56,746 bases of DNA from Tritonibacter horizontis (GTDB lineage Bacteria > Pseudomonadota > Alphaproteobacteria > Rhodobacterales > Rhodobacteraceae), in contig NZ_LPUY01000080.1 in assembly GCF_001518015.1 (NCBI RefSeq), positions 1 to 56,746 on the forward strand. Reading direction: 5' to 3'. This document shows positions 1 to 45,139 of the stretch, piece after piece. Numbering within the stretch: position 1 is the stretch's first letter; every line of letters begins with the position of its first letter. Both the position numbers and the translations under genes were made by a program. The notes beneath the pieces are model-generated. The model saw only the letters and a list, made by a program, of their open reading frames with translations. It was not told where the DNA came from and did not search any database.

Positions 1-53
1 TCGTCAGGCTCATAACCTGAAGGTCGTAGGTTCAAATCCTACTCCCGCAACCA
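1..53 (+). tRNA. tRNA-fMet(CAU), 3' part only
   Basis: The window opens inside the D-loop side of an initiator tRNA. The anticodon stem-loop with CAT in its loop, the T-arm (GGTTCAAATCC) and the encoded CCA at 51-53 are all present. The arrangement CAGGCTCATAACCTG followed by AGGTCGTAGG is typical of bacterial initiator tRNAs. The 5' half lies outside the window. tRNA genes are common insertion neighbourhoods, and an IS remnant follows. Confidence 0.9.
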
Positions 54-28380: not shown

Positions 28381-28415
28381 GAAGGGAGATCCCAATGACT
28401 GGAGGAGGCATTCGG

Positions 28416-29477: not shown

Positions 29478-29484
29478 GCGGCCT

Positions 29485-29508
29485 GGGCGGCCGGAGCCCC
29501 GGCCGCCC
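29485..29508 (+). other. GC-rich stem-loop between dctP and dctQ (system 2)
   Basis: A perfect 10-bp inverted repeat (29485-29494 with 29499-29508) with a 4-base loop, 7 bases after the dctP stop. No proper T-tract follows. Its position matches the hairpins after the binding-protein genes at 14606, 42011 and 47686. Confidence 0.75.
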
Positions 29509-29613
29509 TTCAGGACAGAACCAGCCACATAACGCGAATGCAGGCCCGATCCGTCCCGGATGGGGCAGGGGCCTGCAGGTCACACCATCGCCATCAGGGC
29601 AGGGAGGGCGCTC

Positions 29614-30111
29614 ATGCTGAACCGGATCGAACGGATTTTTGTGGATGTGGCTGCGATGGCCATCATCCTTCTCGGGCTGCTGATCTTTGTTGATGTCGTG
29701 GCGCTCAATGTCTTTGCCGCGCCGGTGCCCGATACGATCATCATCGTGCGCGAACTGATGGTGATCGCCATCGTGTTGCCACTGGCCGCCGCGACCCTGA
29801 AACGGGCGCATATTGCGGTGGAATTCGTGACCAACTTTTTGCCGGCGCGGGTGGTCAACTGGTTCGTGGTCTTTGGCAGTCTGTTTGCCCTGCTGGCGCT
29901 TAGCCCGCTGGTTTATGCAGGGACCAAGGATCTGATCCATCAATGGACCACCGGCAGCGTCTTTTATGGTGACCTCGGGCTGCCTCAATGGCCGGGGCGA
30001 CTGGCCTTTGTCATGGGGGTCGGGCTGACCTGGCTGCGCCTTCTGGTGATGCTGTTTCAGGACAGCCTGACGGCCCTCAGAGGCGGAGAAATTGAATTCG
30101 GCGGTCACTAG
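29614..30111 (+). CDS. TRAP transporter small permease DctQ (system 2)
   Basis: Four-helix inner-membrane protein of 165 residues, the usual DctQ length. Helices lie at about 9-30, 43-63, 83-105 and 132-155. The segment PDTIIIVRELMVIAIVLPLAAATLKRAHIAVEF is the family core. ATG 29614 follows AGGGAGG at 29601-29607. It lies between the binding protein and the large permease as in typical dctPQM operons. Confidence 0.87.
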   Translation: MLNRIERIFVDVAAMAIILLGLLIFVDVVALNVFAAPVPDTIIIVRELMVIAIVLPLAAATLKRAHIAVEFVTNFLPARVVNWFVVFGSLFALLALSPLVYAGTKDLIHQWTTGSVFYGDLGLPQWPGRLAFVMGVGLTWLRLLVMLFQDSLTALRGGEIEFGGH

Positions 30112-30189
30112 GATCGCGCGATCCGGGGCCGCGCGCGTGCGGGCGAAACACAAAATCTCAGCAAGAGATGGACGAACAGGGACAATATC

Positions 30190-31530
30190 ATGGATCCGGC
30201 AACTATCGGACTGGTCGCTTTTGGCGTCATGCTCATTCTACTGGCCATGCGGGTGCCCATCGCCTTTGCGCTGATGGGCGTTGCAACGCTTGCGGCCTTC
30301 GCGATCTTTGCGTTTCGCACCGGAACCTTCATGCCAGAGCGCGCCCTGCGGGCGACCGCATCCATCGTGTTTTCAAATTCCTTCGACCTGATCCACAGTT
30401 TCGATCTGTCGATGATCCCGCTCTTTGTCGTGCTCGGCAATATCGCCTATCGCGCCGGGATCACCACGGCGGTCTACAATTCGGCCCGCGTCTGGCTGCA
30501 ACAGTTGCGCGGTGGGGTCGCCATGGCCTCCATCGTGGGCTGTGGCGGGTTTTCGGCGATCACTGGGTCTTCAATCGCCTGTGCCTCGACCATGGGGCGC
30601 ATCTGCACGCCCGAGATGTTGCGGATGGGCTATGACAAGCGGCTGGCCACGGCCAGCGTTGCCGCCGGGGGCACCATGGGGTCGCTGATCCCGCCCAGCG
30701 TGCTGTTCATCGTCTATGCGATCTTCACCGAAACCTCGGTGTCAAAGCTCTTTCTGGCGGGGATTCTGCCCGGCCTGCTGACGCTGATCGGTTTTGTCAT
30801 CGTGGTGCTGATCTGGTCCGCGATTGATCCCAAGGTGGCTCCGGTCGCCGCCGAACGCGCCAGCCGCGCAGAGCGGCTGCGCGCCGCGCTGGAGGCCTGG
30901 CCCGCCGTTTTGATCTTTCTCATCGTGGTGGTTGGCATCTACGGTGGTTTTTTCACCGCAACCGCCGCCGCTGCCGTGGCGGTCGTTGCCACCACGGCCA
31001 TCGGGTTTGCCCAACGCCGCCTGTCCCTGCGTGATCTCTGGCTGGCGGTACGCGAAACCTGCATCCAGTCCACCTCGATCTTTATTGTCGCGGCTGCGGC
31101 CAAGATCTTTGTGGCGGCCATCGCACTGACCGGGCTGGCCCCGGCGCTGGTGCAGACCGTGTCCGAGGCGCAGCTGTCCTTTCCGGTCCTGTTGCTGTGC
31201 ATCTGCGCGGTCTATCTGGCGCTGGGCATGTTCCTCGATCCGATCGGGATCATGGTGCTGACCCTGCCACTGGCGGTGCCCATGGTCGAGGCCTACGGCA
31301 TGAACCTCATCTGGTTTGGTGTCGTGGTGGTGAAGCTGCTGGAGATCGGCCTGATCACGCCACCGGTGGGCCTCAACGTGTTTGTCCTTTCCAACGTGGT
31401 GGGCAAGGCGGCGCCGATTGGCGCGATCTTTGCCGGCATCTGGCGGTTTCTGTGCGCGGATGTGATTGTTCTGGGGCTGATCCTGGCCTTCCCGGCGATT
31501 TCGCTGGTGCTGTCGGAAGCGGTGCAATGA
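30190..31530 (+). CDS. TRAP transporter large permease DctM (system 2)
   Basis: Large TRAP permease of 446 residues with many membrane helices. Family segments: FSAITGSSIACASTMGRI, ASVAAGGTMGSLIPPSVLFIVYA (PPS motif), GMFLDPIGIMVLTLPL and LITPPVGLNVFVLSNV. The gap of 78 bases from dctQ has no other gene. The IclR gene starts 31 bases after its stop and is probably part of the same transcript. Confidence 0.9.
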   Translation: MDPATIGLVAFGVMLILLAMRVPIAFALMGVATLAAFAIFAFRTGTFMPERALRATASIVFSNSFDLIHSFDLSMIPLFVVLGNIAYRAGITTAVYNSARVWLQQLRGGVAMASIVGCGGFSAITGSSIACASTMGRICTPEMLRMGYDKRLATASVAAGGTMGSLIPPSVLFIVYAIFTETSVSKLFLAGILPGLLTLIGFVIVVLIWSAIDPKVAPVAAERASRAERLRAALEAWPAVLIFLIVVVGIYGGFFTATAAAAVAVVATTAIGFAQRRLSLRDLWLAVRETCIQSTSIFIVAAAAKIFVAAIALTGLAPALVQTVSEAQLSFPVLLLCICAVYLALGMFLDPIGIMVLTLPLAVPMVEAYGMNLIWFGVVVVKLLEIGLITPPVGLNVFVLSNVVGKAAPIGAIFAGIWRFLCADVIVLGLILAFPAISLVLSEAVQ

Positions 31531-33414: not shown

Positions 33415-34377
33415 ATGTGGAATCTCATCGCCGACGTCGGCGGCACCAATATGCGGTTGGCCGCTGTGAACGCCGAGGGCGAAATCCTCGAGCAAGCCCG
33501 CTATGACACCAAGGGTGCGCTCAATCTCGAACAGGCCTGTGCCGATTTTGCAGATCATCGCGGCGGCGCGCCCGGACGGGCGGTGATTGCCGCCGCTGGT
33601 GTGGTGCGGGGTGGGTCGGTGCAGTTGACCAATGCGCATCAGAGCTTTTCGGAACGTGGCATCGCCTCCGCGCTCAAAATCGAACGGGCCAAGGTGCTGA
33701 ACGATTTCGAGGCCGCCGCCTGGTCGCTGGCCTCTGTCGGCGCGGGCGATGTGACCGTGCTGCAAGGCGCGGCGGTCTTTCCCAAAGAACCCTGCCTGAT
33801 CATCGGCCCCGGCACCGGTCTTGGCGTCGGCGCGCTGGTCTGGGCCAATGGCGAACCCTGCGTGGTGCCGGGCGAGGGCGGCCATGTTGCCCTGGGTCCC
33901 CGCACCCCGGACGAGGTCGCGATTTTCGAGGCCCTGCGCGAGGAATGGCCCGAGGTCGGCATGGGGCCGGGCCTCGTGGTCGAAGCGGAGGCGATCCTGT
34001 CGGGCACCGGCCTGCCGTATTTCTATCGCGCCGTGGCCCGCAGTATGGATCTGACGGCGCCGCTGACCACTGGTGCAGAAATTTTTACCTCTGCCAAGGC
34101 GCGGCTCGACACCGCAGCGATGCGCGCGGTTGCGCTCTTTGCGCAGTACCTCGGGGGGGTCGCGGGTGACCTCGGCCTCGTCTTCGCGGCCAAGGGCGGT
34201 GTGTTTGTGACCGGCGGTGTGGCCGCCGCCAATCCCTGGATCTTTGACAAGGCCTTTGTCGATGCGTTCAACGCCGGCGGGCGCCATACCTCCTGGCGCG
34301 AAGAGCTGCCGCTGCATCTCTACAACCAGCCGAACTTTGGCCTGATCGGGGCGCGCAACTACCTGTTGGCGCGCTGA
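33415..34377 (+). CDS. glk: Glucokinase
   Basis: Sugar kinase of 320 residues of the bacterial Glk family. N-terminal phosphate-binding motif LIADVGGTNMRLAAV (about 4-18), catalytic Asp in VLNDFEAAAW (about 98-107), sugar and ATP loops IIGPGTGLGVGALVW and VPGEGGHVALGPR. The C-terminal VFVTGGVAAANPW is present. It converts glucose to glucose 6-phosphate. Lying just before the sulfonate monooxygenase island, it would take up the free glucose that the island's aldo/keto reductase is expected to make. Confidence 0.92.
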   Translation: MWNLIADVGGTNMRLAAVNAEGEILEQARYDTKGALNLEQACADFADHRGGAPGRAVIAAAGVVRGGSVQLTNAHQSFSERGIASALKIERAKVLNDFEAAAWSLASVGAGDVTVLQGAAVFPKEPCLIIGPGTGLGVGALVWANGEPCVVPGEGGHVALGPRTPDEVAIFEALREEWPEVGMGPGLVVEAEAILSGTGLPYFYRAVARSMDLTAPLTTGAEIFTSAKARLDTAAMRAVALFAQYLGGVAGDLGLVFAAKGGVFVTGGVAAANPWIFDKAFVDAFNAGGRHTSWREELPLHLYNQPNFGLIGARNYLLAR

Positions 34378-34410
34378 CCGACCCGCTGCACCGGCAGCTC
34401 TGCAACAGAC

Positions 34411-34436
34411 ACGGCCGCCCCGGCAGGAGCGGCCGT
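34411..34436. terminator. Bidirectional terminator-like hairpin between glk and the Gfo/Idh/MocA gene
   Basis: Perfect 8-bp inverted repeat (34411-34418 with 34429-34436) and a 10-base loop between two convergent genes. It is followed by TTTGC on the plus strand, a weak T-tract. Confidence 0.55.
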
Positions 34437-34457
34437 TTGCATGTTCATCCCGCCAGG

Positions 34458-35564
34458 TCAGAGCAGTTCGGCAATCTCCACCGCCCGGTGCTCCGTCATG
34501 GAAATCTGCGCGGCCATGCCCATCAGCACCGCCATCTTGCCATCCTCCAGGCTGACCTCGGCGGTGTCGCGCGCGCCGCGCACAAGCTCAAGGAACCCTT
34601 TGTGCTGATAAAAGGTTGACCCGTTGTGATCGCCGGCCTCCAGGATCGTCGGATCAACCGGAATGTCGCGCACCTCCGGCCCCTTGGGGTCACGGGGCGA
34701 CACGATGACCTGCGGCACCGGGGGCGCGCCCAGATGGGCGGGCCAGAACCGGCCGGGTCCGGGCACCAGGGCCTCGATCTTGCCCTTTGGCCCCACGGCA
34801 GAGATTTCCTCCTGATAACGGGCGCCCTCGGCAAACATGCACAATTCCAGCATTGCCCGGGTGCCATTGGCGAAATCGACGATCACATACCCGTTGTCGA
34901 GGATGTCAGGCGTCTCGCCCGCGTAGCGTTCGCCCAGATGATTCACGTCCTGCCCGCCAGAGGCAAGCACCCGCAGCGGTTCCGATTTCAGGGTCAGCCG
35001 CATCAGGTCAAAGAAGTGGCAGCATTTTTCAACAAACGTACCGCCGGTGTAGCGGTTGAAGCGGTTCCAGTCGCCCACCTTTTCGAGAAAGGGAAACCGA
35101 TGTTCGCGGATGGTCAGCATGCGAATGCCACCCGTTGCCGCATCGGCATCGCGCAACAGGGTCGCGACGGGCGGCATATAGCGGTATTCCATCGCCACCC
35201 AGACCGGCGCGGGATAGCTGGCGCGAAACGCGTCCAGCCTTGAAACATGGGCAGGGTCGGTGAACAGGGGTTTTTCCACCAGCACCGGCAAGGGCCGGGT
35301 TGCAGCCAGGGTCTCCAGCTGTTCGATGTGACGATAGTTGGGGCTGGCGATCAGCAGACAATCGAGCCCCTCGACCGCCAGCAGGTCCGCAATGCTGTCG
35401 ACCAGCTGCGCGCCGGGCGCAAAGGTCAGGCTCTCGGCGGCCATGGCGGCGTCCGGCTCGAAAATCGCGCCGACGCGGGTGCCCTCCAGCAGCGCGATAT
35501 TGCGCAGGTGTTCCTGCCCCATCATGCCGCAGCCGATGACGCCATAGGTGATGATTTTTGACAC
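34458..35564 (-). CDS. Gfo/Idh/MocA-family protein; possible NAD-dependent sulfoquinovosidase (GH188/SqgA-like)
   Basis: NAD(P)-binding protein of 368 residues. Rossmann motif YGVIGCGMMGQEHLRN (GxGxxG at 11-16), VLVEKPLFT with the family EKP (97-99), and the substrate-domain motif GGTFVEKCCHFFD (K180, H183, D186). Members of this family include sugar dehydrogenases and the NAD-dependent sulfoquinovosidases of GH188. The latter are found in sulfoquinovose clusters that lack a GH31 sulfoquinovosidase, which is also the case here. The assignment as glycosidase comes from context (sulfonate monooxygenase, aldo/keto reductase and flavin reductase next door), not from a diagnostic residue I can name. 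A plain sugar dehydrogenase is the alternative. It is cotranscribed leftward with the GntR gene, 11 bases away. Confidence 0.7.
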   Translation of the reverse strand: MSKIITYGVIGCGMMGQEHLRNIALLEGTRVGAIFEPDAAMAAESLTFAPGAQLVDSIADLLAVEGLDCLLIASPNYRHIEQLETLAATRPLPVLVEKPLFTDPAHVSRLDAFRASYPAPVWVAMEYRYMPPVATLLRDADAATGGIRMLTIREHRFPFLEKVGDWNRFNRYTGGTFVEKCCHFFDLMRLTLKSEPLRVLASGGQDVNHLGERYAGETPDILDNGYVIVDFANGTRAMLELCMFAEGARYQEEISAVGPKGKIEALVPGPGRFWPAHLGAPPVPQVIVSPRDPKGPEVRDIPVDPTILEAGDHNGSTFYQHKGFLELVRGARDTAEVSLEDGKMAVLMGMAAQISMTEHRAVEIAELL

Positions 35565-35575
35565 GGGTCTCTCCC

Positions 35576-36298
35576 TTAAATCAGGCGCTGTACATAGAGC
35601 GCTTTGTCTGTGTCGAACCAGGTTCTGGAAAACTCCACCGGGGCGGCCTCCTGCGCCCAGCTGAAGCGTTCGATGTAGCCGGTGAGCGTGTCCGGCCGCA
35701 GACCAAACGTGTCAGGCGCCCAGTGCGGCACATGTCCGATGGAAACGCGATCCTCGGCCCGCGCGATCAGCAGGCCGAGTTGCATCTGGTAGGTGCGGTA
35801 GAGCGAATCCGACATCTGTTCAGGCCGGATGGTGCCCGCAGCGCCGTCCAGCCAGATCTCCTCCACCGCGACAGGCTGACGGTTCAGGAACCGCAGTCTG
35901 CGAAACCGTGTGCCATGCGTCGCCGCCCCGAAAGAAGGCAGGTCAGCGGGCTTTTCCATCGCGGCAATGTCGAGGATATCAGCCGTTGGCAGGCCGCCCC
36001 CGGTGGTCAGCTCGAGGCGAAACATACTATAGACGCTCTGGGCATGGTGGTTGGCACGGATGTAGTTTCCGGACCCTTGGATGCGCTCCAGCATCCCCTT
36101 TTTCTCTAGCTCCAGCAATGACTTGCGCAGGGTGCGCACAGTGGTTCCATGGCTGCGCGCCAGATCGCGTTCCGGCGGCAGACGTTGCCCGTCCACCAGC
36201 CGCCCGGCTGCGATTTCGCGGATCAGGAATTCGCTGATCTGCATGTAGATCGGCAACGCCGTCGGGGTGTCGCGATCGAGGTCATGTATCGGGGTCAT
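35576..36298 (-). CDS. GntR-family regulator with UTRA effector domain
   Basis: Regulator of 240 residues. N-terminal winged helix-turn-helix (about 12-75; LIREIAAGRLVDGQRLPPERDLARSHGTTVRTLRKSLLELEKKGMLERI) and C-terminal UTRA ligand-binding domain (about 95-238). This is the HutC-type architecture that often senses sugars or sugar phosphates. Start at 36298 (MTPIHDLD) is preferred. The longer frame to 36349 would begin inside the TTGATG repeats that look like its operator. It is divergent from the sulfonate monooxygenase operon and probably represses it until the sugar sulfonate or a product appears. Confidence 0.85.
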   Translation of the reverse strand: MTPIHDLDRDTPTALPIYMQISEFLIREIAAGRLVDGQRLPPERDLARSHGTTVRTLRKSLLELEKKGMLERIQGSGNYIRANHHAQSVYSMFRLELTTGGGLPTADILDIAAMEKPADLPSFGAATHGTRFRRLRFLNRQPVAVEEIWLDGAAGTIRPEQMSDSLYRTYQMQLGLLIARAEDRVSIGHVPHWAPDTFGLRPDTLTGYIERFSWAQEAAPVEFSRTWFDTDKALYVQRLI

Positions 36299-36337
36299 GG
36301 TCACACTCTGGGCACGGAAGGGGCGAGGCAGAAAAAA

Positions 36338-36354
36338 TTGATGCACCATTGATG
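36338..36354. promoter_or_regulatory. Direct-repeat operator candidate for the GntR/UTRA regulator
   Basis: TTGATG is repeated at 36338-36343 and 36349-36354, an 11-base period that places both on one helix face. The site lies in the AT-richer spacer between the divergent regulator and monooxygenase genes. The partial dyad GTACATC/GATGCAC overlaps it. Confidence 0.5.
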
Positions 36355-36409
36355 TACTTTAATTCTGCTGCTACGCAAGAGGAAATTCGATTGCTCTCAG
36401 GAGACAGAA

Positions 36410-37564
36410 ATGACCGTCGTTCCCATCACGTCCCCCGATCTGGACGCTGCCGAAGTGTCCTGGTTTTCGGCGCTGTGTTCTGATGATTATCAGTTTCTCG
36501 GGGTGCCCGACGGGGATCTGCGGTCGTCCTGGGCGCATTGCTCGGAGATCGTGAAAACCGCCGAGTCACAGGGTTTTCGCAACATCTTGTGCCCGTCCTC
36601 CTATCAGGTCGGGCAGGATACGCTGTCCTTCGTGGCGGGCTGCGCGCCGATCACCTCCCGCATCAACATGCTCGCGGCGGTGCGCTGTGGCGAGATGCAG
36701 CCGATCATGCTGGCCCGCACGCTGGCGACGCTGGATCACATGTTGGAGGGGCGGCTGACGGTCAATATCATCTCCTCCGATTTTCCCGGGGAGAAGGCCG
36801 AAAGCGGCTATCGCTATCAGCGCTCCCGCGAGGTGGTGGAGATCCTGAAACAGGCCTGGACCCGCGATGAAATCAACTATGAAGGCGAGGTGTACAGCTT
36901 CAAGGGGCTGACCACCGATCCGGTGCGTCCCTATCAAACCGGTGGGCCGCTTTTGTATTTCGGCGGCTATTCCCCCGCCGCGCTGGAGCTTTGCGGTCAG
37001 CATTGCGACGTCTATCTGATGTGGCCGGAAAAGATCGAAGAGCTGCAAGGCCGCATGCAGGCTGTGCACAGCGTGGCGGAAAAATACAATCGCACCCTCG
37101 ATTACGGTCTGCGCGTGCACACCATCGTCCGCGACACCGAAGCCGAGGCGCGCGAATACGCCGACTATATCGTCTCCAAACTGGATGACGAGCAGGGCCG
37201 GGCCATCCGCGAACGGGCGCTGGATGCCAGCTCGCTTGGGGTCAGCCACCAGTCAAAGAACCGCGAGATCGCCGATGATGACGGCTTTATCGAGCCGAAC
37301 CTGTGGACCGGCGTGGGCCGGGCGCGCTCGGGCTGCGGCGCGGCGCTGGTTGGCTCCACCGATCAGGTGATGAGCAAGCTGGAAGCCTATCAGAAAATGG
37401 GCATCCGCGCCTTCATCCTGTCGGGCTATCCGCATATCGAAGAGGCAAGGCACTTTGGGGCCCGCATTCTGCCAAACATGAAAACCTGCTCGCTGCCTCA
37501 GGCCTATGGCCGGGTTCCGGCGAGCGCGCCAGAAACACCGCTCGGTGTAGGAGTTCGCCGCTGA
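36410..37564 (+). CDS. SsuD-family FMNH2-dependent sulfonate monooxygenase (SmoC-like)
   Basis: Flavin-dependent monooxygenase of 384 residues with the bacterial-luciferase barrel. It follows the SsuD alkanesulfonate monooxygenase pattern across its length. The segment GLRVHTIVRDTEAEA carries R235 and H237, NLWTGVGRARSGCGAALVG carries R306, and ILSGYPHIEEARHFG carries Y340. These correspond to the conserved SsuD active-site residues Arg226, His228, Arg297 and Tyr331. The SsuD cysteine near residue 54 is not kept. It needs reduced FMN from a partner reductase and releases sulfite. Next to an aldo/keto reductase and a flavin reductase, and without SsuABC, it best fits sulfoquinovose monooxygenase. 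The stop overlaps the next start (TGATG). DNA ahead contains AGGAGA as ribosome-binding site. Confidence 0.85.
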   Translation: MTVVPITSPDLDAAEVSWFSALCSDDYQFLGVPDGDLRSSWAHCSEIVKTAESQGFRNILCPSSYQVGQDTLSFVAGCAPITSRINMLAAVRCGEMQPIMLARTLATLDHMLEGRLTVNIISSDFPGEKAESGYRYQRSREVVEILKQAWTRDEINYEGEVYSFKGLTTDPVRPYQTGGPLLYFGGYSPAALELCGQHCDVYLMWPEKIEELQGRMQAVHSVAEKYNRTLDYGLRVHTIVRDTEAEAREYADYIVSKLDDEQGRAIRERALDASSLGVSHQSKNREIADDDGFIEPNLWTGVGRARSGCGAALVGSTDQVMSKLEAYQKMGIRAFILSGYPHIEEARHFGARILPNMKTCSLPQAYGRVPASAPETPLGVGVRR

Positions 37565-38454
37565 TGGACCGTATCAAACTCAACGATACCCTGGAATTTT
37601 CCCGCCTGATCTACGGCATGTGGCGGATTGGCGACGACGCCGATACTTCCGTCAAACATGTCGAGGCAAAGATCAACGCCTGTCTCGAACAGGGCATCAC
37701 CACCTTCGATCAGGCCGACATCTATGGCAGCTACGCCGCCGAGGGCATTCTGGGCGCCGCGCTCAAGGCGAACCCGAGCCTGCGCGACCAGATGGAGATC
37801 GTGACGAAATGCGATATCGTCGCGCCCATCGGGATGCACAGCGACAAGCCGGGCAAATATTACGACACCTCCCGCGCCTATATCGAGGGCGCGGTGGACC
37901 GGTCGCTGACGGAAATGGCGATCGAGCAGATCGACCTTCTGCTGATCCACCGGCCGGACCCCTTGATGGACCACCATGAAACCGGCGCGGCGCTGGACGG
38001 GTTGATCGCCTCTGGCAAGGTCAGGGCCGTGGGCGTGTCGAACTTCCGTCCCTGGGACTGGACGTTGCTGCAATCGGCGATGGACACCAGACTTGTCACC
38101 AACCAGATCGAGATGTCGCTGTCAGAGCTTGCGCCCTTTACCAATGGCGATCTGGCGTTTCACCAGCAGAATGCGCAGGCGGTGATGGCCTGGTCGCCCC
38201 TGGGCGGCGGCAGCCTGATGACCGGGCAGGGGGCGCTCGCCAGCTGTCTGGATGAGATCGCCAGTGCACAGGGCGTGGACCGCGCCGCGGTCGCCGTGGC
38301 GTTCCTGTTGCGTCACCCGGCGACCATTCTGCCGGTTCTGGGCACCAACACCCTGTCGCGCATCCAGGCGATTTCGGACGCGCTGAAGGTCGAATTGGAC
38401 CGCCCCACATGGTTCCGGCTCTATCAGGCCGGTCTGGGCCAGGAGGTGCCATGA
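37564..38454 (+). CDS. Aldo/keto reductase (SmoB-like, 6-oxo-glucose reductase candidate)
   Basis: NAD(P)H-dependent reductase of 296 residues. The catalytic tetrad of the superfamily is visible as D49 and Y54 (FDQADIYG), K82 (EIVTKCD) and H129 (LLIHRPDP). The N-terminus MDRIKLNDTLEFSRLIYGMW and the C-terminal VLGTNTLSRI resemble the YdhF branch to which SmoB of Agrobacterium belongs. In the sulfo-SMO pathway this enzyme reduces the 6-aldehyde left after C-S cleavage to glucose. Its start overlaps the monooxygenase stop by one base, so the two are made together. The longer upstream frame is out of phase with the monooxygenase and is not coding. Confidence 0.87.
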   Translation: MDRIKLNDTLEFSRLIYGMWRIGDDADTSVKHVEAKINACLEQGITTFDQADIYGSYAAEGILGAALKANPSLRDQMEIVTKCDIVAPIGMHSDKPGKYYDTSRAYIEGAVDRSLTEMAIEQIDLLLIHRPDPLMDHHETGAALDGLIASGKVRAVGVSNFRPWDWTLLQSAMDTRLVTNQIEMSLSELAPFTNGDLAFHQQNAQAVMAWSPLGGGSLMTGQGALASCLDEIASAQGVDRAAVAVAFLLRHPATILPVLGTNTLSRIQAISDALKVELDRPTWFRLYQAGLGQEVP

Positions 38455-38455
38455 C

Positions 38456-38977
38456 ATGGGCCTGCAGATGAGCAAACAGACCCAACGGGCCTTTGTGCCG
38501 GACGAGAGCAACACCCGGCTCTTGCGCGATGCCTTTGGCCGGTTCGCCACCGGGGTCACCATCGTGACCGCGCAGACGCCCGAGGGCGTGGTGGCGATCA
38601 CGGCCAGCAGTTTTTCGTCCGTTTCGCTGACCCCGGCGATGGTGCTGTGGTCGCCGGATCGCAACTCGCGTCGCTTTCCCTATTTCGAGCGGGCCGAACA
38701 TTACGCGATCCATGTCCTGGCAGCGGATCAGGAGGATCTCTGCTTCAAGGTGGCAAAGGACGCCGGCGGCCTGCGCGGGCTGGATCTGGGGCAGAATGCC
38801 GAAGGGGTGCCGGTGCTGGAGGGCTGCCTGGCGCGATTCGAATGCACCCGCCGCGCGGTTTACGACGGAGGAGACCACGCCATTGTGCTGGGCGTCGTGA
38901 ACCGGGCTGAAATGCGGGAAGAAGGCGAAGCGCTCGCCTTTTTCAAAGGACAATTAGGCCGTATCTGCGCGCATTGA
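38456..38977 (+). CDS. Flavin reductase (SmoA-like) supplying FMNH2
   Basis: Flavin reductase-like split-barrel protein of 173 residues. The stretch LRDAFGRFATGVTIVTAQTPEGVVAITASSFSSVSLTPAMVLWSPDRNSR (about 21-70) is the family's flavin-binding core. The C-terminal DHAIVLGVVNRAEM also fits. AGGAGGTG at 38441-38448 inside the end of the previous gene is the ribosome-binding site. It is third in the monooxygenase operon and is the expected source of reduced FMN for the SsuD-like enzyme. The NAD(P)H preference cannot be read from the sequence. Confidence 0.88.
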   Translation: MGLQMSKQTQRAFVPDESNTRLLRDAFGRFATGVTIVTAQTPEGVVAITASSFSSVSLTPAMVLWSPDRNSRRFPYFERAEHYAIHVLAADQEDLCFKVAKDAGGLRGLDLGQNAEGVPVLEGCLARFECTRRAVYDGGDHAIVLGVVNRAEMREEGEALAFFKGQLGRICAH

Positions 38978-39036
38978 TCGGCGCGTCGCAGCCCACCGGC
39001 CGCAGGTTCGGTGGGCGATGTTCTGGGAGGAACAAC

Positions 39037-39627
39037 ATGAACGCATTGATGGCGGTGGTGACACCGCTGTACTGGCTCAACGCCGGCCTGTTGCGCTTTG
39101 GGCGCTGGCTGGGCTGCGCCGCCGTCGCGGTGATGGTGTCAGTGATCCTGGTCCAGGTGTTTTGCCGCTATGTGCTCAACAACGCCTTGCCCTGGCCGGA
39201 CGAGGCGGCGCGGTTCTGCATGCTCTGGATGACCGGGCTGATGGCGCCCACCGCCTTTCGGCAGGGCGGATTTGTGGCCATCGACACGCTGTCGTCGATG
39301 CTGCCGGCCCGGATCGGTGATCTTTTGTCGCTCTGCCTGTTGGCGCTCAGCTTGCTGGTGCTGATCTGCGCCGTCCGGATCGGCTATGGCGAGGTCACCG
39401 GGATTGGCGGCCGCTTTACCACGGCCTCGCTCTACCTGCCGACATCGCTGAGTTTTGACAGCTGGTTTCGCCTGCCGCGCAGCTGGATGATGCTGTCGCT
39501 GCTGGTTGGGCTGGCGCTGCTGATCCTGGTCAATATCGAACTGATCCTGCGCCGTGTGGTCGCTGTGCTGGGCGGCGGCGACCGTCTGCCCACCCTTGAA
39601 TTTGCCGTGACAAAAGGGGCCGAGTGA
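39037..39627 (+). CDS. TRAP transporter small permease DctQ (system 3)
   Basis: Inner-membrane protein of 196 residues. Helices lie at about 24-46, 62-80, 97-118 and 148-168. The core VQVFCRYVLNNALPWPDEAARFCMLWMTGLMAPTAFRQGGFVAIDT is the DctQ signature. ATG 39037 has GGGAGG at 39025-39030. It begins 59 bases after the flavin reductase on the same strand, so it is probably part of the monooxygenase operon. The order here is Q-M-P, unlike P-Q-M in the other two systems of the window. Confidence 0.88.
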   Translation: MNALMAVVTPLYWLNAGLLRFGRWLGCAAVAVMVSVILVQVFCRYVLNNALPWPDEAARFCMLWMTGLMAPTAFRQGGFVAIDTLSSMLPARIGDLLSLCLLALSLLVLICAVRIGYGEVTGIGGRFTTASLYLPTSLSFDSWFRLPRSWMMLSLLVGLALLILVNIELILRRVVAVLGGGDRLPTLEFAVTKGAE

Positions 39628-40916
39628 TGCTGATCTGGTTCTTGCCACTGTTTCTCGTCTTCCTGATGATCGGCCTGCCGGTGTTTTTTGGCCTTTTGGC
39701 GGCCCCGGGTCTTCTGTTGTGGCTGAACGGGCAGGAGCGTGACATCACGCTGCTGTATCGCAACCTTTACAACGGGATGGACAGTTTCCCGCTGATGGCG
39801 ATCCCGTTCTTCATGCTTGCGGGCGAGCTGATGAACAAGGGCGGCATCACCCTGCGGCTGGTCGAATTCTCGCAGGCGCTGATGGGCCATCTGCGTGGCG
39901 GGCTTGCCCATGTCAACGTGCTGTCGTCGATGCTGTTTGCAGGGCTGTCCGGCTCGGCGGTGGCGGATACCTCGGCCTTGGGCTCCATGCTGATCCCGGC
40001 GATGGAAAAACAGGGCTACACGCGCAAATTCGCCGCCGCGATCACCGCTGCAAGCTCGGTGATCGGCCCAATCATCCCGCCATCGGGGATCATGATCATC
40101 TACGCCTATGTGATGGGGGAAAGCGTCGCGGCGCTGTTCCTGGCGGGGCTGGTCCCCGGCATTCTGGTGGGCGTCGGTCTGATGCTGATGGTCAAGGTGA
40201 TGGCGGATCGCTACGATTTTCCGGTTGCCTCGCGCCGCTACAGCTGGGGCGAACGCGGTCAGGCCAGCCTCAAGGCGTTCTTTCCGCTGATGACCCCGGT
40301 GATCATCCTCGGCGGTATTCTTGTGGGGGTCTTCACCCCGACCGAGGCCGCCGCCGTTGCTGTCGCCTATGCGCTGATCATCGGCTTTTTCGTCCTGCGC
40401 ACGCTGCACCTGCGCGAGCTGCCCGATATCCTGACCCGTGCGGGCATCACCTCTTCGGTGGTGCTGTTGCTGGTGGGGGCGGCGATGTCGTTCAAAACCG
40501 TGGTCTCGCTCAGCCATGCGCCAGAGCAGCTGGCCGAATTCATCCTGACGCTGACGGAAAACCCGCTGCTGTTGCTGTTCCTGATCAACCTGTTGCTGTT
40601 CGCGGTGGGCATGTTCCTGGACGCAGGCCCGGCGATCATCATCCTTGGCCCGATCCTCGGTCCCGTCTTTGTCGGGCTGGGCGTCGACAGCATCCATTTT
40701 GCCATCATCATGTGCGTGAACCTCACCGTGGGGCTGGCAACACCGCCGATGGGGCTGGTGCTGTTTGTGGCCTCTGCCGTCTCGGGCGAACGGGTGACGA
40801 CGATCTCCCGCGCCATCCTGCCGTTTCTGGCCGTCGAAGTGGCGGTGATCTTTCTGATCACCTTCGTTCCGGCCATTTCCATGACGATCCCGCGCCTGAC
40901 CGGGTTCGCCAATTGA
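39627..40916 (+). CDS. TRAP transporter large permease DctM (system 3)
   Basis: Permease of 429 residues of the DctM family. Markers are FPLMAIPFFMLAGELMNKGG, FAGLSGSAVADTSALGSM, AASSVIGPIIPPSGIMIIYAYV and GLATPPMGLVLFVASAVSG. The start ATG overlaps the dctQ stop (TGATG). By operon membership it is the candidate importer of sulfoquinovose or its glycerol glycoside. This would be a TRAP replacement for the ABC importer of known smo clusters. Confidence 0.9.
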   Translation: MLIWFLPLFLVFLMIGLPVFFGLLAAPGLLLWLNGQERDITLLYRNLYNGMDSFPLMAIPFFMLAGELMNKGGITLRLVEFSQALMGHLRGGLAHVNVLSSMLFAGLSGSAVADTSALGSMLIPAMEKQGYTRKFAAAITAASSVIGPIIPPSGIMIIYAYVMGESVAALFLAGLVPGILVGVGLMLMVKVMADRYDFPVASRRYSWGERGQASLKAFFPLMTPVIILGGILVGVFTPTEAAAVAVAYALIIGFFVLRTLHLRELPDILTRAGITSSVVLLLVGAAMSFKTVVSLSHAPEQLAEFILTLTENPLLLLFLINLLLFAVGMFLDAGPAIIILGPILGPVFVGLGVDSIHFAIIMCVNLTVGLATPPMGLVLFVASAVSGERVTTISRAILPFLAVEVAVIFLITFVPAISMTIPRLTGFAN

Positions 40917-40952
40917 GTTGACCAAGAAGAAGAGCACTAGGGAGGAAACCAC

Positions 40953-42011
40953 ATGCTCAAGACAGTCCTGAAAACCGCCGCGGTTGCGGCCCTTCTGGCC
41001 TCCAGCGCGCTGTCGGCCGCGGCGGCCGATTACACCATCCGCGCCACCGCCAATTCCAATGAAAACGACGAGGACTACGATGGTCTCGTGGTGTTCAAGA
41101 ACTACGTCGAGGCCGCCTCCAACGGCGCGATCGAGGTCGAACTGTTCATCGGCACCCAGCTGTGTTCCAACGGTGCGGAATGCCTGCAGGGCGTCGCGGA
41201 TGGCTCCATCGACGTCTATATCTCCACCTCCGGCGGCGCGGCGGGGCTGTTCCCTTACGTGCAGGTGCTGGATCTGCCCTATCTGATGGCCGATGACCGC
41301 GTGGCGGAACATGTGCTGTCGGGCGATTTCACCCGCACCATCCGCGACATGGCGCTGGCGGATTCCGGCGATACGATCCGCCTGATGACCATCGGCAACA
41401 CCGGCGGCTGGCGCAACTTTGCCAATACCAAGCGCCGGGTGGCAGAGCCGGCCGACATGGAAGGCCTGAAAATCCGCACCGTGGTCGCCGCCCTGCCGCA
41501 GGAGCTGGTCAAGGCCCTGGGCGCATCACCCACCCCGATCCCATGGCCGGAACTGTTCACCTCGTTCCAGACCGGCGTGGTCGAAGGGTCCAAGAACGGC
41601 ATCACCGACATCATGGGCATGAAATTCCCGGACGCCGGCCTGCAATACATCACCCTCGACGGGCACGCCTATATGGGTGCGCTGTGGTGGATGTCGAATG
41701 AGACCTTCCTGGATATGCCCGAAGACATGCGCCAGGTTGTCGTTGACGGGTTCTATGCGCTGCAACAGGCCACCTTTGCCTCGCCCAAGCGCAAATCAAT
41801 CGCGGCCTACGAGGAATTCGTCGCCGGGGGCGGTGACCTGTATGTGCCGACACCGGAACAGAAAACCGCCTTCAAAGAGGCCGCTGCCCCGGTTTATGAC
41901 TGGTTCAAATCCAATGTGACCAAAGGGGACGAAGCCTTTGCCGCGCTGACCGAAGCCGTCGCTGCCGCCGAGGCAGATATCTCTGCCGCCCGGGCCAAGG
42001 ATCTCAACTGA
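40953..42011 (+). CDS. TRAP transporter substrate-binding protein DctP (system 3)
   Basis: Periplasmic binding protein of 352 residues. Signal peptide MLKTVLKTAAVAALLASSALSAAAA, mature start about DYTIRATANSNENDEDYDG. The ligand-arginine region MEGLKIRTVVAALPQELVKALGA and IPWPELFTSFQTGVVEGSKNG are the DctP core. It has two cysteines (QLCSNGAECL, about 70-77) close together that may form a disulfide in the binding lobe. It ends the operon, 36 bases after dctM, with a hairpin behind it. Predicted ligand by context is a sugar sulfonate. Confidence 0.88.
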   Translation: MLKTVLKTAAVAALLASSALSAAAADYTIRATANSNENDEDYDGLVVFKNYVEAASNGAIEVELFIGTQLCSNGAECLQGVADGSIDVYISTSGGAAGLFPYVQVLDLPYLMADDRVAEHVLSGDFTRTIRDMALADSGDTIRLMTIGNTGGWRNFANTKRRVAEPADMEGLKIRTVVAALPQELVKALGASPTPIPWPELFTSFQTGVVEGSKNGITDIMGMKFPDAGLQYITLDGHAYMGALWWMSNETFLDMPEDMRQVVVDGFYALQQATFASPKRKSIAAYEEFVAGGGDLYVPTPEQKTAFKEAAAPVYDWFKSNVTKGDEAFAALTEAVAAAEADISAARAKDLN

Positions 42012-42069
42012 TCTGCGGGTTGCCCTGGCTGCGGGCGGGGTGTTGCGCCGGATGACGGTGACACCATCG

Positions 42070-42102
42070 GAGGGGAGGCGGGCAGAGGCCGCGCCTCCCC
42101 TC
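42070..42102 (+). terminator. Stem-loop at the end of the sulfonate/TRAP operon
   Basis: A perfect 11-bp inverted repeat (42070-42080 with 42092-42102) with an 11-base loop, 58 bases after the dctP stop. It is followed by ACCGCGTTTT, so the T-tract is displaced. It probably ends or protects the operon mRNA. Confidence 0.65.
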
Positions 42103-42226
42103 ACCGCGTTTTGGCGCTGGCCTGTCTGCAGAAATCCTCCAGCCGGGACGGCGGTGACGGATTTGCGGTTTATCAGGGCCGCAGCCGCACATAGGGTCGG
42201 GGCAGACCCTCGCGACAGGAGCGCCC

Positions 42227-42538
42227 ATGATACTGCACTGCGTCTTTTGCAACCTGCGCGCTGACGCCCCGCCCGCAGCCGTAACGACGGTTCTGGAGCA
42301 GCTGCGCCGCTTCAGCCTGTCGCTGTATGGGGTTGTGGCCTTTGACGCCGGTCCGAACCGGGATTTCGAGATGAAATCCCAGCAGGTCGACACGGGGTTC
42401 GTGATCCGATTCGAGACGGCGGCGGCGCTGGAGGCCTATGCGGTACATCCAACCCACCGCAGCCTCGGCCGCGAGCTGGCCGCCCTCTGCACCGGTGGTG
42501 GCGATGGCATCGTGGTCTATGATCTGGAGGTCGACTGA
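42227..42538 (+). CDS. Dabb-domain (stress-responsive A/B barrel) protein
   Basis: Small protein of 103 residues with the dimeric ferredoxin-like Dabb pattern: strand MILHCVFCNLRA, helix, strand, then DFEMKSQQVDTGFVIRFETAAALEAYAVHPTHRSLG, which includes the family HPTH segment. Function is not established for most members; some act on aldehyde or polyketide substrates. It stands 215 bases after the TRAP binding protein, past the hairpin, so it may have its own promoter. Confidence 0.8.
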   Translation: MILHCVFCNLRADAPPAAVTTVLEQLRRFSLSLYGVVAFDAGPNRDFEMKSQQVDTGFVIRFETAAALEAYAVHPTHRSLGRELAALCTGGGDGIVVYDLEVD

Positions 42539-42619
42539 AGGCGGCTTGATCTTCCGCGACAGAAGATCAACCCTGCGCCCAGACCCCGTTCCCTGCCAGC
42601 AGGAGCCTCGCGCCGCGAC

Positions 42620-43429
42620 ATGACCGACACCGCGCCCCCCCAGCCGCCATCGCCGACGCCGCAGATCTTTACCTACCGTGGTCAACCCGTGATCCGCGAC
42701 GCGGACCTTGCGGCCCTGTTTGACTACACCACCGGCAATCTCAACAAACTGGTGAACAACAACGCCGACCGCTTTGGCGAAGAATTCGTCTTTCGCCTGA
42801 CGCAAGAGGAATTCGCCGACTTGAAACGCCAGCTTGGAAGATCAAGCCAGCATGGCGGGCTGCGGCATCCGCCGTTGATGTATACCGAACATGGCGCCGT
42901 GATGGCCGCGACGCTGATGCGCTCGCCCCGCGCCGCCGAAGCGTCGCGTTTCGTGGTCAAGACCTTCGTCGCCGCCCGTCGCAGCCTGCTTGCCAGGGCC
43001 AAGGGGCAGAATTTTCCACCAAGCCTGCCGATCAATGAGCTGGTCCCCCTGGCCGGCGCGGACCGCAGCGGGCTGGTGGCCAAACTCGACACCGCGCTGG
43101 GCCGGGTGCTGGATGCGATCGCCGATCCGCAACAGGAAACCACCGTGCGGGACGAGGCCCGCGCCATCGCGCTTGAAGGGCTGTCCGCGATCAAGGCGCA
43201 TCTCAGGAAGCAGGATATCGCCAATGAAAAGACCCTGGCGGAGGTGCAAAAACTCCTCAAGGAGGCAGAGGCAATCGACGCCGAAATCGCAACCCGTCAG
43301 ATCGAGAACAACCATCGCCAGCTGGCCTATCTGGCCAAGCAGTTGCGGATCGTGATCGAAGTGCAGCGCTATCTGGAACAGGGCAACATGGAAAACCTGC
43401 TGGCGGTGCTCAAGGATCTGGGTGGGTGA
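42620..43429 (+). CDS. Orphan ORF6N-domain DNA-binding protein
   Basis: Protein of 269 residues. The N-terminal ORF6N/KilA-N-type domain (about 15-110) reads VIRDADLAALFDYTTGNLNKLVNNNADRFGEEFVFRLTQEE and later PPLMYTEHGAVMAATLMRSPRAAEAS. A charged, probably coiled-coil C-terminus (about 185-265) follows. The domain is typical of temperate phage antirepressors and related regulators. No integrase, repressor or structural phage gene is nearby, so it is a domesticated or stranded gene in a metabolic island. The proline-rich N-terminal stretch (TAPPQPPSPTP) is unusual for the family. Confidence 0.8.
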   Translation: MTDTAPPQPPSPTPQIFTYRGQPVIRDADLAALFDYTTGNLNKLVNNNADRFGEEFVFRLTQEEFADLKRQLGRSSQHGGLRHPPLMYTEHGAVMAATLMRSPRAAEASRFVVKTFVAARRSLLARAKGQNFPPSLPINELVPLAGADRSGLVAKLDTALGRVLDAIADPQQETTVRDEARAIALEGLSAIKAHLRKQDIANEKTLAEVQKLLKEAEAIDAEIATRQIENNHRQLAYLAKQLRIVIEVQRYLEQGNMENLLAVLKDLGG

Positions 43430-43634
43430 TCGAGGGGGCTCCGGTGACCCGGCGGAGCGCCTTCGGCGCACAGGATCAGGCGCTGGCGCGCCGGCCGGCG
43501 CCTGGTCTGGAACGTCTTGAAATTATTGCGGAAGCGGCGGGTCGCGGCCTTTGGGGGCAGGGCGCTCGGCGCGATGCGACCAGCGGGCGCGCCGCAGATC
43601 CGAGCGCCATGGCGGGGGTGACGGCAGGGACCGA

Positions 43635-44306
43635 TCAGCCCTGACGCAGCATCAGGCTGGCGGCGACCTGTTCCAGATGGCGGCGCATGGCCTGCCGGGC
43701 GGCCGCCGGGGCACTGGCGCAGATGGCATTGGCGATGGTCCCGTGCTGTATGGAATTCTCGGCGATTTCATCCGGGCCAAGGGCGCTTTGACGGGCATGG
43801 GTCCAGTCGGTCGCCTGGCGCAGGCTGCGAATTTCCTCGAACAGGGTCAGAAAGACCGGGTTGCAGGCCATTTCGGCGATTTTGTAGTGGAAAATGTCGT
43901 CGGCCCGCTCATAGCCCGCCAGATCGGGCGCGCGCAGGGTGTCTTCCATCAGGCGCAGCAACAGCGCCTTGTCCTCTGCGCCGCCGCGCTCGGCGGCATG
44001 GGCGGCGACGGCGGGTTCCAGTTCCAGCCGCACCTCCATCAGATGGCGGGGCGACACCCGGCGGGCCAGTACGCCAAGCCGCCCCATCGCCTGGGCGGGT
44101 GGCGGTTTCAGAAAGGTGCCCTGCCCATGTCGGCGAAAGATCAAACCCTCGCGGGCGAGATCATCGAGAATGCCGCGCAGCCGGCTGCGCGACACCGACA
44201 ACCGCTGGGCCAGAACGCGTTCGGGCAGGAGCCTGTCGGCCTCGGCCAGATCGCCGCTCAGGATTGCGGCGCGCAGGTCCTCTGCGGAGCGTTCGGGTGC
44301 GGTCAT
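43635..44306 (-). CDS. GntR-family regulator with FCD domain
   Basis: Regulator of 223 residues. The winged helix N-terminus (about 8-70; ERVLAQRLSVSRSRLRGILDDLAREGLIFRR) is followed by the all-helical FCD domain (about 85-215) with the conserved acidic and histidine positions used for metal or ligand (DIFHYKIAEMACNP, HGTIANAI, RQAMRRHLE). ATG 44306 overlaps the tauE-like stop (ATGA), so it is translated with the exporter. It probably controls the exporter operon through the palindrome at 45202. Confidence 0.87.
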   Translation of the reverse strand: MTAPERSAEDLRAAILSGDLAEADRLLPERVLAQRLSVSRSRLRGILDDLAREGLIFRRHGQGTFLKPPPAQAMGRLGVLARRVSPRHLMEVRLELEPAVAAHAAERGGAEDKALLLRLMEDTLRAPDLAGYERADDIFHYKIAEMACNPVFLTLFEEIRSLRQATDWTHARQSALGPDEIAENSIQHGTIANAICASAPAAARQAMRRHLEQVAASLMLRQG

Positions 44307-45139
44307 AGCCACCCCGCTTGCTGGGCCAGATCGGCGAACATGCGCAGCGACGTGATCATCAGGAACACGCCGAAACAGAGCTTTAGCGCCCGGCGCGGGA
44401 TGGCATGGGCCAGTTTGACCCCGACCCGCGCGAAAGTGGTCGACAGAGGAATGATCACAGCCGCCAGCAGCAGATTGACATAGCCCAGCGACAGGGGCGG
44501 CAAGCCCTCGGCGCCAAATCCGGTCGCCATGTAGATCAGCGCACCGGGCAGGCCGATGATGAAGCCGATCGCGGCCGATGTGCCGACGGCTTTGCGGATG
44601 TCATAGCCAAGAAAGCTCAGCACCGGCACGCAGACCGTTCCACCGCCGATGCCCATCATCGCCGAGACCGCGCCGGCAAAGGTCCCGAGCCCCGCCCAGA
44701 CCGGTTTGGAAAAGGATTTCGGCTCTGGCATGTCCTTTGGTTTGCGCAGGATCATGTCCAGCGCCACGGCCATGGCCACGGTGGCAAAGACCACCAGCAG
44801 CACATTGCCCGAAACCAGCCCGCCGAGGATGCCACCGATCACCACGCCGATCAGGATCGACGGCGCCCAGAGTTTCAGCAAGGCGGCGTCGATGGCGCCC
44901 TTCTTGTAGTGGCCATAGCCGGACGACAGCGAGGTAAACACGATGGTGGCCAGCGAGGTGCCCACCGCCACCTGCATGGTCAGGGCCGGGTCCATACCGG
45001 TCAGCGACAGCGCGAAATAAAGCGCAGGCACGATGACGATGCCGCCGCCGACGCCCAGCAGACCGGCCAATATGCCGCCCAGCACGCCCGCCGCAGCCGC
45101 GACCCCGAGAAGGGGAAGCAATGTTTCAAGTTCCAGCAT
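44303..45139 (-). CDS. TauE/SafE-family sulfite/anion exporter
   Basis: Inner-membrane protein of 278 residues of the TauE/SafE family. Its two repeats are each marked by a glycine motif: LAGLLGVGGGIVIVPALYF (about 22-40) and AMMGIGGGTVCVPVLSFLGY (about 165-184). About eight membrane helices are expected. The family exports sulfite or sulfoacetate made during sulfonate breakdown. The SsuD-like monooxygenase 7 kb away must release sulfite, so this is a fitting partner, though it is in a separate leftward operon. ATG 45139 is used; extra residues upstream are not hydrophobic and not conserved. Confidence 0.88.
   Translation of the reverse strand: MLELETLLPLLGVAAAAGVLGGILAGLLGVGGGIVIVPALYFALSLTGMDPALTMQVAVGTSLATIVFTSLSSGYGHYKKGAIDAALLKLWAPSILIGVVIGGILGGLVSGNVLLVVFATVAMAVALDMILRKPKDMPEPKSFSKPVWAGLGTFAGAVSAMMGIGGGTVCVPVLSFLGYDIRKAVGTSAAIGFIIGLPGALIYMATGFGAEGLPPLSLGYVNLLLAAVIIPLSTTFARVGVKLAHAIPRRALKLCFGVFLMITSLRMFADLAQQAGWL

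What the first reader, a model, noticed from the sequence alone, without database searches (positions are those of the whole stretch)
33415..45139. Sulfoquinovose-type oxidative desulfonation island with a TRAP importer and sulfite exporter
Seen: an SsuD-family monooxygenase keeping four SsuD active-site residues (R235, H237, R306, Y340), a YdhF-type aldo/keto reductase and a flavin reductase in one overlapping operon, followed by TRAP dctQMP. Divergent from them are GntR/UTRA and Gfo/Idh/MocA genes. Glucokinase and a TauE/SafE exporter flank the set. Known: SmoA (flavin reductase), SmoB (aldo/keto reductase) and SmoC (SsuD-type monooxygenase) convert sulfoquinovose to glucose and sulfite in Agrobacterium, where uptake is by an ABC system and the glycosidase is GH31. 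Inferred: this window holds a variant in which TRAP replaces ABC uptake and a Gfo/Idh/MocA protein (GH188 type) replaces the GH31 enzyme, with glucokinase and sulfite export close by.
Basis: partly seen in the sequence, partly recalled or inferred. Interest (0 to 1): 0.88.

Follow-up and report, generated by a model that had tools for sequence, protein, structure and literature searches.

The report
Sulfosugar-degrading operon with TRAP importer
This marine-type bacterium carries an already known set of genes for stripping sulfur off the plant and algal sugar sulfoquinovose, but coupled to an uptake system of a different kind, which two unrelated sulfoquinovose pathways appear to share.

Summary
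Window 34458-42011 carries SmoC, SmoB and flavin reductase genes plus dctQMP, divergent from GntR/UTRA and a GH188-type Gfo/Idh/MocA gene. GH188 keeps all eight published sulfoquinovose (SQ) contacts, as do the 126 other sequences aligned (52, 80). So this is a sulfo-SMO pathway with a GH188 sulfoquinovosidase, a pairing already published for Roseobacter bacteria (15).

The less-known part is the TRAP. In the 80 nearest SmoC loci it follows the flavin reductase in 63, an ABC module stands there in 6, none has both. Of 394 family genomes, 142 have the DctP orthologue, 109 of these with SmoC; of the other 33, 22 carry it near GH188 and sulfo-EMP-type genes. Two unrelated SQ pathways thus share TRAP and GH188, pointing to SQ or its glycerol glycoside as cargo. 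On a DctP tree the two contexts intermix. I found no TRAP assigned to SQ in the papers searched; two key papers were not held.

Glucokinase and TauE are not conserved neighbours: 2 and 3 of 80 loci (92). Ligand and activities are untested.

The parts
34458..35564 (-). GH188-type (SqgA) NAD+-dependent sulfoquinovosidase, Gfo/Idh/MocA fold
   Evidence: 66.7% identity to 8zn9, 49.5% to 8qc3; all eight SQ-contact residues given for ArSqgA are kept
35576..36298 (-). GntR/UTRA regulator; start set at the internal Met because the element at 36338 is conserved
   Evidence: Pfam GntR and UTRA; orthologue in 80 of 80 SmoC loci
36338..36357 (+). conserved operator-like element TTGATNCACNATTGATNTAC in the divergent intergenic region
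   Evidence: only match in the window at up to 3 mismatches; 16-base core once each in 73 of 80 genome contigs SmoC loci, upstream of smoC
36410..37564 (+). SmoC, FMNH2-dependent sulfoquinovose monooxygenase
   Evidence: 75.8% identity to 7olf, 74.5% to 7oh2; that these entries are SmoC is recalled
37564..38454 (+). SmoB, 6-dehydroglucose reductase (aldo/keto reductase)
   Evidence: 64.2% identity to 7bby; that this entry is SmoB is recalled; the next PDB hits, YdhF-type, score about 190 bits against 410
38456..38977 (+). flavin reductase (SmoA role)
   Evidence: PF01613; below the FerA model cut-off, 192.9 of 260 bits
39037..39627 (+). DctQ, small TRAP permease
   Evidence: PF04290
39624..40916 (+). 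DctM, large TRAP permease
   Evidence: PF06808 and TIGR00786 over cut-off
40953..42011 (+). DctP, TRAP solute-binding protein, inferred to bind SQ and/or SQ-glycerol
   Evidence: PF03480; co-occurrence with SmoC and with sulfo-EMP-type genes; invariant residues
33415..34377 (+). glucokinase, sole PF02685 gene found in the genome; would phosphorylate the glucose, but not a conserved neighbour
44303..45139 (-). TauE/SafE exporter; possible sulfite exporter, adjacency not conserved
   Evidence: PF01925; 3 of 80 loci

Best explanation
The cluster is a sulfo-SMO (sulfolytic SQ monooxygenase) operon whose importer is a TRAP system. Inferred route: DctP in the periplasm captures SQ and/or its glycerol glycoside; DctQM carries it in, presumably with an ion gradient; GH188 frees SQ from the glycoside; the flavin reductase supplies reduced FMN; SmoC cleaves the C-S bond with O2 to 6-dehydroglucose and sulfite; SmoB reduces 6-dehydroglucose to glucose; glucokinase passes it to central metabolism; sulfite is oxidised or exported. 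The GntR/UTRA protein probably controls both directions from the conserved element between it and smoC. Shown here: gene identity by homology, conserved SQ contacts in GH188, conserved order, TRAP/ABC alternation, and TRAP sharing with sulfo-EMP-type clusters. Inferred: all activities, the ligand of DctP, the regulation, and the fate of sulfite.
For: Best PDB matches of SmoC and SmoB at 74-76% and 64% identity over full length. GH188 at 66.7% to 8zn9 and 49.5% to 8qc3 with 8 of 8 SQ-contact residues, and the same eight in all 127 GH188 sequences aligned, window included. In the 80 nearest SmoC loci 63 have the TRAP; 6 of the other 17 have an ABC module at that place; none has both. In 394 family genomes SmoC 164, DctP orthologue 142, both 109; Fisher p 7e-27, not corrected for relatedness. 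Of 100 genomes with printed coordinates for both, 94 have them within 10 kb and 6 on different contigs. Of 33 genomes with DctP but no SmoC match, 22 have it near GH188 and sulfo-EMP-type genes; the kinase of one of them best matches sulfofructose kinase 7ag6. 10 of 12 plasmid records matched by DctP have it at 74% identity or more, and all 10 have SmoC within 5 kb.
Against: No ligand or activity data. 55 of 164 SmoC genomes lack the DctP orthologue, and 11 of 80 loci show neither this TRAP nor a full ABC module, two of them cut short by a contig end and one (L058) with parts of the ABC module. L084, L100 and L159 carry the TRAP with no recognised SQ enzyme in the stretch, and L161, with a 50% DctP, has none clearly. 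The 80 loci are the closest of 561, and some fetched stretches come from the same or near species, so counts are not independent. The predicted DctP structure has low confidence at 199-227 and its fold neighbours do not single out a ligand. The flavin reductase was not shown to be an SmoA orthologue.
Confidence: 0.85

Rival explanations
1. The enzymes are a true sulfo-SMO/GH188 set, but the TRAP imports another solute, such as a uronate or other sugar acid met on the same plant or algal material, and SQ enters elsewhere.
For: TRAP binding proteins are described as limited to carboxylate substrates by a conserved arginine (abstract of PMC4646407 in a search listing), and that arginine is kept here. 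Three stretches have the TRAP and no recognised SQ enzyme (L084, L100, L159). 55 of 164 SmoC genomes lack it.
Against: The same TRAP sits near two unrelated SQ pathways whose other shared part is GH188, alternates with an ABC importer at the same place and keeps a fixed set of residues in both contexts (91 of 91 sequences). A TRAP binding protein for a sulfonate exists (IseP, isethionate).
Confidence: 0.12
2. The monooxygenase acts on a simple alkanesulfonate (SsuD or MsuD function) and the neighbours are incidental.
Against: 674-684 bits to 7oh2/7olf against 184-188 to alkanesulfonate monooxygenase chains; SmoB in 79 and GH188 in 78 of 80 loci.
Confidence: 0.03

Closest known systems
Sulfo-SMO (sulfo-ASMO) pathway of Agrobacterium and Novosphingobium (PMC12890257, passages and one short section; Sharma et al. 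2022 recalled, not held)
   Same: SmoC, SmoB and a flavin reductase; glucose and sulfite as inferred products
   Different: Importer is TRAP rather than ABC; sulfoquinovosidase is GH188 rather than GH31. The Agrobacterium gene set is taken from the finding and from memory; no locus named Agrobacterium was fetched
Roseobacter sulfo-SMO clusters with GH188 (Kaur et al. 2023, PMC10755693, passages and part 1 of 2 of Results)
   Same: GH188 with sulfo-SMO genes, same clade; this window looks like a member
   Different: Its main text has 0 hits for 'transporter' and 'TRAP'; its figures and supplement were not seen, so a TRAP may be drawn there
IseP, isethionate TRAP binding protein (8t9t, 8te9)
   Same: TRAP binding protein fold; a sulfonate ligand
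   Different: 24% identity in the fold search; a C2 sulfonate rather than a sulfosugar

Membership tests
Sulfo-SMO pathway | SmoC orthologue closer to SmoC chains than to alkanesulfonate monooxygenases | tested here: met
   that 7oh2/7olf are SmoC is recalled, and one search found no paper to confirm it
Sulfo-SMO pathway | SmoB aldo/keto reductase in the same cluster | tested here: met
   that 7bby is SmoB is recalled
Sulfo-SMO pathway | flavin reductase in the same cluster | tested here: met
   PF01613; orthology to SmoA not tested
Sulfo-SMO pathway | sulfite release from SQ | not testable with these tools
   needs an assay
GH188 (SqgA) | sulfonate triad Arg166, Leu170, Lys172 | tested here: met
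   R156, L160, K162 in the window protein, placed through 8qc3 with one constant offset
GH188 (SqgA) | Lys107, Tyr136, Glu189, His193, His321 contacts | tested here: met
   K98, Y127, E179, H183, H313; 127 of 127 sequences
GH188 (SqgA) | NAD+-dependent SQase activity | not testable with these tools
   needs an assay
TRAP transporter (DctPQM) | DctP, DctQ and DctM together | tested here: met
TRAP transporter (DctPQM) | conserved ligand arginine of SiaP (R147) in DctP | tested here: met
   R175 aligns with it and is kept in 91 of 91; the role of the arginine is from the abstract of PMC4646407 in a listing
SQ importer of TRAP type (proposed) | SQ or SQ-glycerol binding | not testable with these tools
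   needs a binding assay
GH31 sulfoquinovosidase | a YihQ-type GH31 in the genome | tested here: not met
   the one GH31 found, on another contig, scores 134 of the 553 bits asked by PRK10426 and best resembles alpha-glucosidases; that PRK10426 stands for YihQ is recalled

The most novel reading that the evidence does not exclude
A TRAP transporter family, marked by an invariant DEDxDG stretch, Cys71/Cys77, Arg154, Arg175 and Asn215 in DctP, is a dedicated sulfoquinovose/sulfoquinovosyl-glycerol importer of marine Alphaproteobacteria. It travels as a cassette, often with a convergent Sel1-repeat protein that follows the TRAP rather than the pathway, and has been plugged more than once into two unrelated catabolic routes (sulfo-SMO and sulfo-EMP) and exchanged with ABC importers.
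Probability: 0.72. Interest if true: 0.62.

Novelty: new variant of a known kind. Interest (0 to 1): 0.5.

Why it matters
SQ is made on a scale of about 10 billion tons a year (abstract of PMC10755693), and uptake decides who can use it. The SQ-binding proteins characterised so far are described as linked to ABC transporters (passage of PMC12421959). If this TRAP carries SQ, a large group of marine Alphaproteobacteria takes up a sulfosugar through a TRAP importer, and its DctP signature becomes a marker for SQ use that does not depend on which catabolic pathway follows. It would also add a sulfosugar to a transporter class described as limited to carboxylates (abstract of PMC4646407 in a listing).

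Tried and rejected
Glucokinase as a dedicated pathway gene: not a conserved neighbour; 2 of 80 loci, sole PF02685 gene found in the genome, and the operator-like element occurs only before smoC in the window. TauE as a conserved part: 3 of 80 loci. A YeiH-type putative sulfate exporter is commoner in the stretches, 14 of 63 TRAP loci and 9 of 17 others.

The simple palindrome TTGATN4ATCAA as operator: 32 hits in the window with up to 2 mismatches against a shuffled mean of 12.4, too loose to use; the longer element gave one hit.

GH31 elsewhere in the genome as the SQase: not supported. Predicted DctP structure and fold search: no ligand discrimination.

The careful tree on 105 rows did not finish, so the quick tree was shown. 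A 48-row careful tree was then made; I thinned its SMO rows to 26 of the 60 (window included in both) and left out the rows labelled smo_remnant, other and paralog. L012 was dropped as too short.

G149 and G209, with 50 and 48% DctP, were removed from the DctP count before the test because of the gap between 69% and 50% identity. In one search coordinates of 150 of the 164 SmoC genomes were used; the printed list was cut.

Literature: searches. One search found 46 papers with sulfoquinovose and TRAP and listed 30, of which I looked for TRAP inside two. One search found two papers with sulfoquinovose and 'tripartite ATP-independent', both on taurine-respiring gut bacteria by title or abstract, not opened. 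One search found 108 papers with at least two of its terms and listed 15; none opened.
Full report
What is there. From 36410 to 42011 on the + strand run an FMN-dependent monooxygenase, an aldo/keto reductase, a flavin reductase and dctQ, dctM, dctP, overlapping or closely spaced. Divergent from them are a GntR/UTRA regulator and a Gfo/Idh/MocA protein. Glucokinase lies beyond the latter; a TauE/SafE gene with a FadR-type regulator lies beyond dctP, after an ORF6N-domain gene. The window is contig C80 of a 4.86 Mb, 139-contig genome.

Enzymes. The monooxygenase matches PDB chains 7olf and 7oh2 at 75.8 and 74.5% identity over its length, 684 and 674 bits, while alkanesulfonate monooxygenase chains (7jv3, 1nqk, 1m41) score 184-188 bits. 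I recall 7oh2/7olf as SmoC and 7bby/7bbz as SmoB from Sharma et al. 2022; no call confirmed it (one search found no relevant paper; the paper itself is not held). The aldo/keto reductase is 64.2% identical to 7bby, with YdhF-type chains far behind. The Gfo/Idh/MocA protein is 66.7% identical to 8zn9 and 49.5% to 8qc3. PMC11465081 names 8QC2, a close relative of 8qc3, as the GH188 structure (part 1 of 2 read). Kaur et al. 2023 give the SQ contacts of ArSqgA (part 1 of 2 of Results read); one constant offset on 8qc3 places all eight on identical residues here, and all 127 GH188 sequences aligned, window included, keep all eight. The one GH31 found in the genome lies on another contig and resembles alpha-glucosidases.

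Already known. Kaur et al. state that GH188 is near-universal in sulfo-SMO clusters of marine Roseobacter bacteria (passages), and PMC13372026 calls the sulfo-SMO pathway prevalent in rhizobial and Roseobacter bacteria (passages). The pathway is reviewed in PMC12890257 (passages and a short section). So GH188 plus SmoC is not new.

Transporter. Of 561 relatives of SmoC in named genomes, the best 80 loci were kept, so this set leans towards the window's own kind. In it, 63 have the TRAP, 6 have an ABC module of binding protein, permeases and ATPase in its place, none has both, and 11 have neither in full; of these L009 and L052 end within 1.3 kb of smoC and L058 has parts of the ABC module. The ABC module, read in L035 (Marivivens donghaensis), starts directly after the flavin reductase and is followed by a YeiH-type putative sulfate exporter. 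In 394 genomes of the window's family SmoC occurs in 164 and the DctP orthologue in 142, after setting aside two genomes at 48-50% identity; both occur in 109, SmoC alone in 55, DctP alone in 33, neither in 197. The Fisher p of 7e-27 ignores relatedness. Of the 100 genomes for which both coordinates were printed, 94 have the genes within 10 kb; the other six have them on different contigs.

The 33 genomes with DctP but without a SmoC match at E 1e-100 were all looked at. In 22 the TRAP stands near GH188, a PfkB kinase and a fucose-isomerase-like protein, with a DeoC/LacD aldolase found in 21 of them, and often an aldose epimerase and an aldehyde dehydrogenase. The kinase of L101 has sulfofructose kinase 7ag6 as its best PDB match; the aldolase's best match is a DUF2090 protein, 8tnf, followed by tagatose-bisphosphate aldolases, so the sulfo-EMP label rests on the whole set. 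Seven others carry smo-type genes without a full SmoC hit (L086, L087, L093, L102, L103, L109, L164; L087 only a flavin reductase), one GH188 and GntR (L095), two a PhyH-type dioxygenase but no known SQ enzyme (L084, L100), and one contig is too short (L163). Outside the family, 6 genomes among the 385 searched in the class have DctP at 80-85%: two near sulfo-EMP-type genes, two sulfo-SMO, one short contig, and one (L159) with no SQ enzyme recognised. Of three more distant relatives at 48-51%, L160 and L162 lie near sulfo-EMP-like genes and L161 does not clearly do so. Of 12 plasmid records with a DctP match, the 10 at 74% identity or more all have SmoC within 5 kb; they include the Ruegeria sp. 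TM1040 megaplasmid and a Rhizobium sp. SL42 plasmid.

Tree and signature. On a 48-row careful tree of DctP the sulfo-SMO and sulfo-EMP contexts need 6 changes (5-7 in bootstraps), at least 2 forced by well-supported branches, and none of 200 bootstrap trees separates them by one branch; its bootstrap had not settled. The quick tree of 105 rows agrees that they intermix. 91 of 91 orthologues share Asp39, Glu40, Asp41, Asp43, Cys71, Cys77, Arg154, Arg175, Asn215 and Trp245; Glu40, both cysteines and Trp245 are not seen at those columns in the 14 paralogues compared, while Arg175 is kept in 13 of them. Arg175 aligns with R147 of SiaP. The same residues in both pathway contexts argue for one ligand. 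The predicted structure is weak in the region 199-227 and does not discriminate between ligands.

Regulation. TTGATNCACNATTGAT occurs once in each of 73 of the 80 SmoC loci, upstream of smoC by about 55-205 bases; in the window it occurs only at 36338. Relatedness of the loci inflates such a count. Glucokinase and TauE have no such element.

Side observation. A small Sel1-repeat protein lies convergently downstream of dctP in 79 of the 80 loci that hold both, median gap 95 bases between the matches, in both pathway contexts; it was found in 80 of 106 loci with a DctP match and in one locus without (L020). With another query and a stricter cut-off it was in 48 of 63 TRAP loci and 0 of 17 without. 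The window has no match for it and none was found in its genome, a search without a positive control.

Judgement. The cluster is a sulfo-SMO operon with GH188 and a TRAP importer. The enzymes are a known combination. The TRAP as SQ importer is inferred from context, strongly, because two unrelated SQ pathways share it. I found no such assignment in the listings and passages seen, most of those papers unopened, and Liu et al. 2023 and Sharma et al. 2022 were not held and may contain it.

Noticed in passing
L101, and L082-L112, L154, L157: The same TRAP sits near GH188 and sulfo-EMP-type genes, often with a DeoR-type regulator, in 22 of 33 family genomes that have DctP but no SmoC match.
   Followed up: yes
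downstream of dctP, e.g. L174:15252-15695 (-): A Sel1-repeat protein lies convergent to dctP in 79 of 80 loci holding both, in sulfo-SMO and sulfo-EMP contexts alike; function unknown. No match in the window.
   Followed up: partly
L084:3133-3879 (-), L100:7994-8758 (-); also L089, L092, L111: A PhyH-family dioxygenase stands near the TRAP; in L084 and L100 no known SQ enzyme was recognised, so it could mark another desulfonating route.
   Followed up: no
L095:12679-14418 (-): GH188, GntR and TRAP without SmoC, with a sulfatase (PF00884) nearby.
   Followed up: no
window 42620-43429 (+): ORF6N-domain gene (a phage-type domain, by recollection) just after the operon, in the place where many relatives have the Sel1 gene.
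   Followed up: partly
window 13734-14525 and 28395-31530: Two further TRAP binding-protein genes in the same window; 34 PF03480 matches in the whole genome.
   Followed up: no
L035:17478-18467 and L174:17079-18104: A YeiH-type putative sulfate exporter near many smo clusters (14 of 63 TRAP and 9 of 17 other loci), commoner there than TauE.
   Followed up: partly
window 1-50 (+): A tRNA cut by the window start (Rfam RF00005).
   Followed up: no
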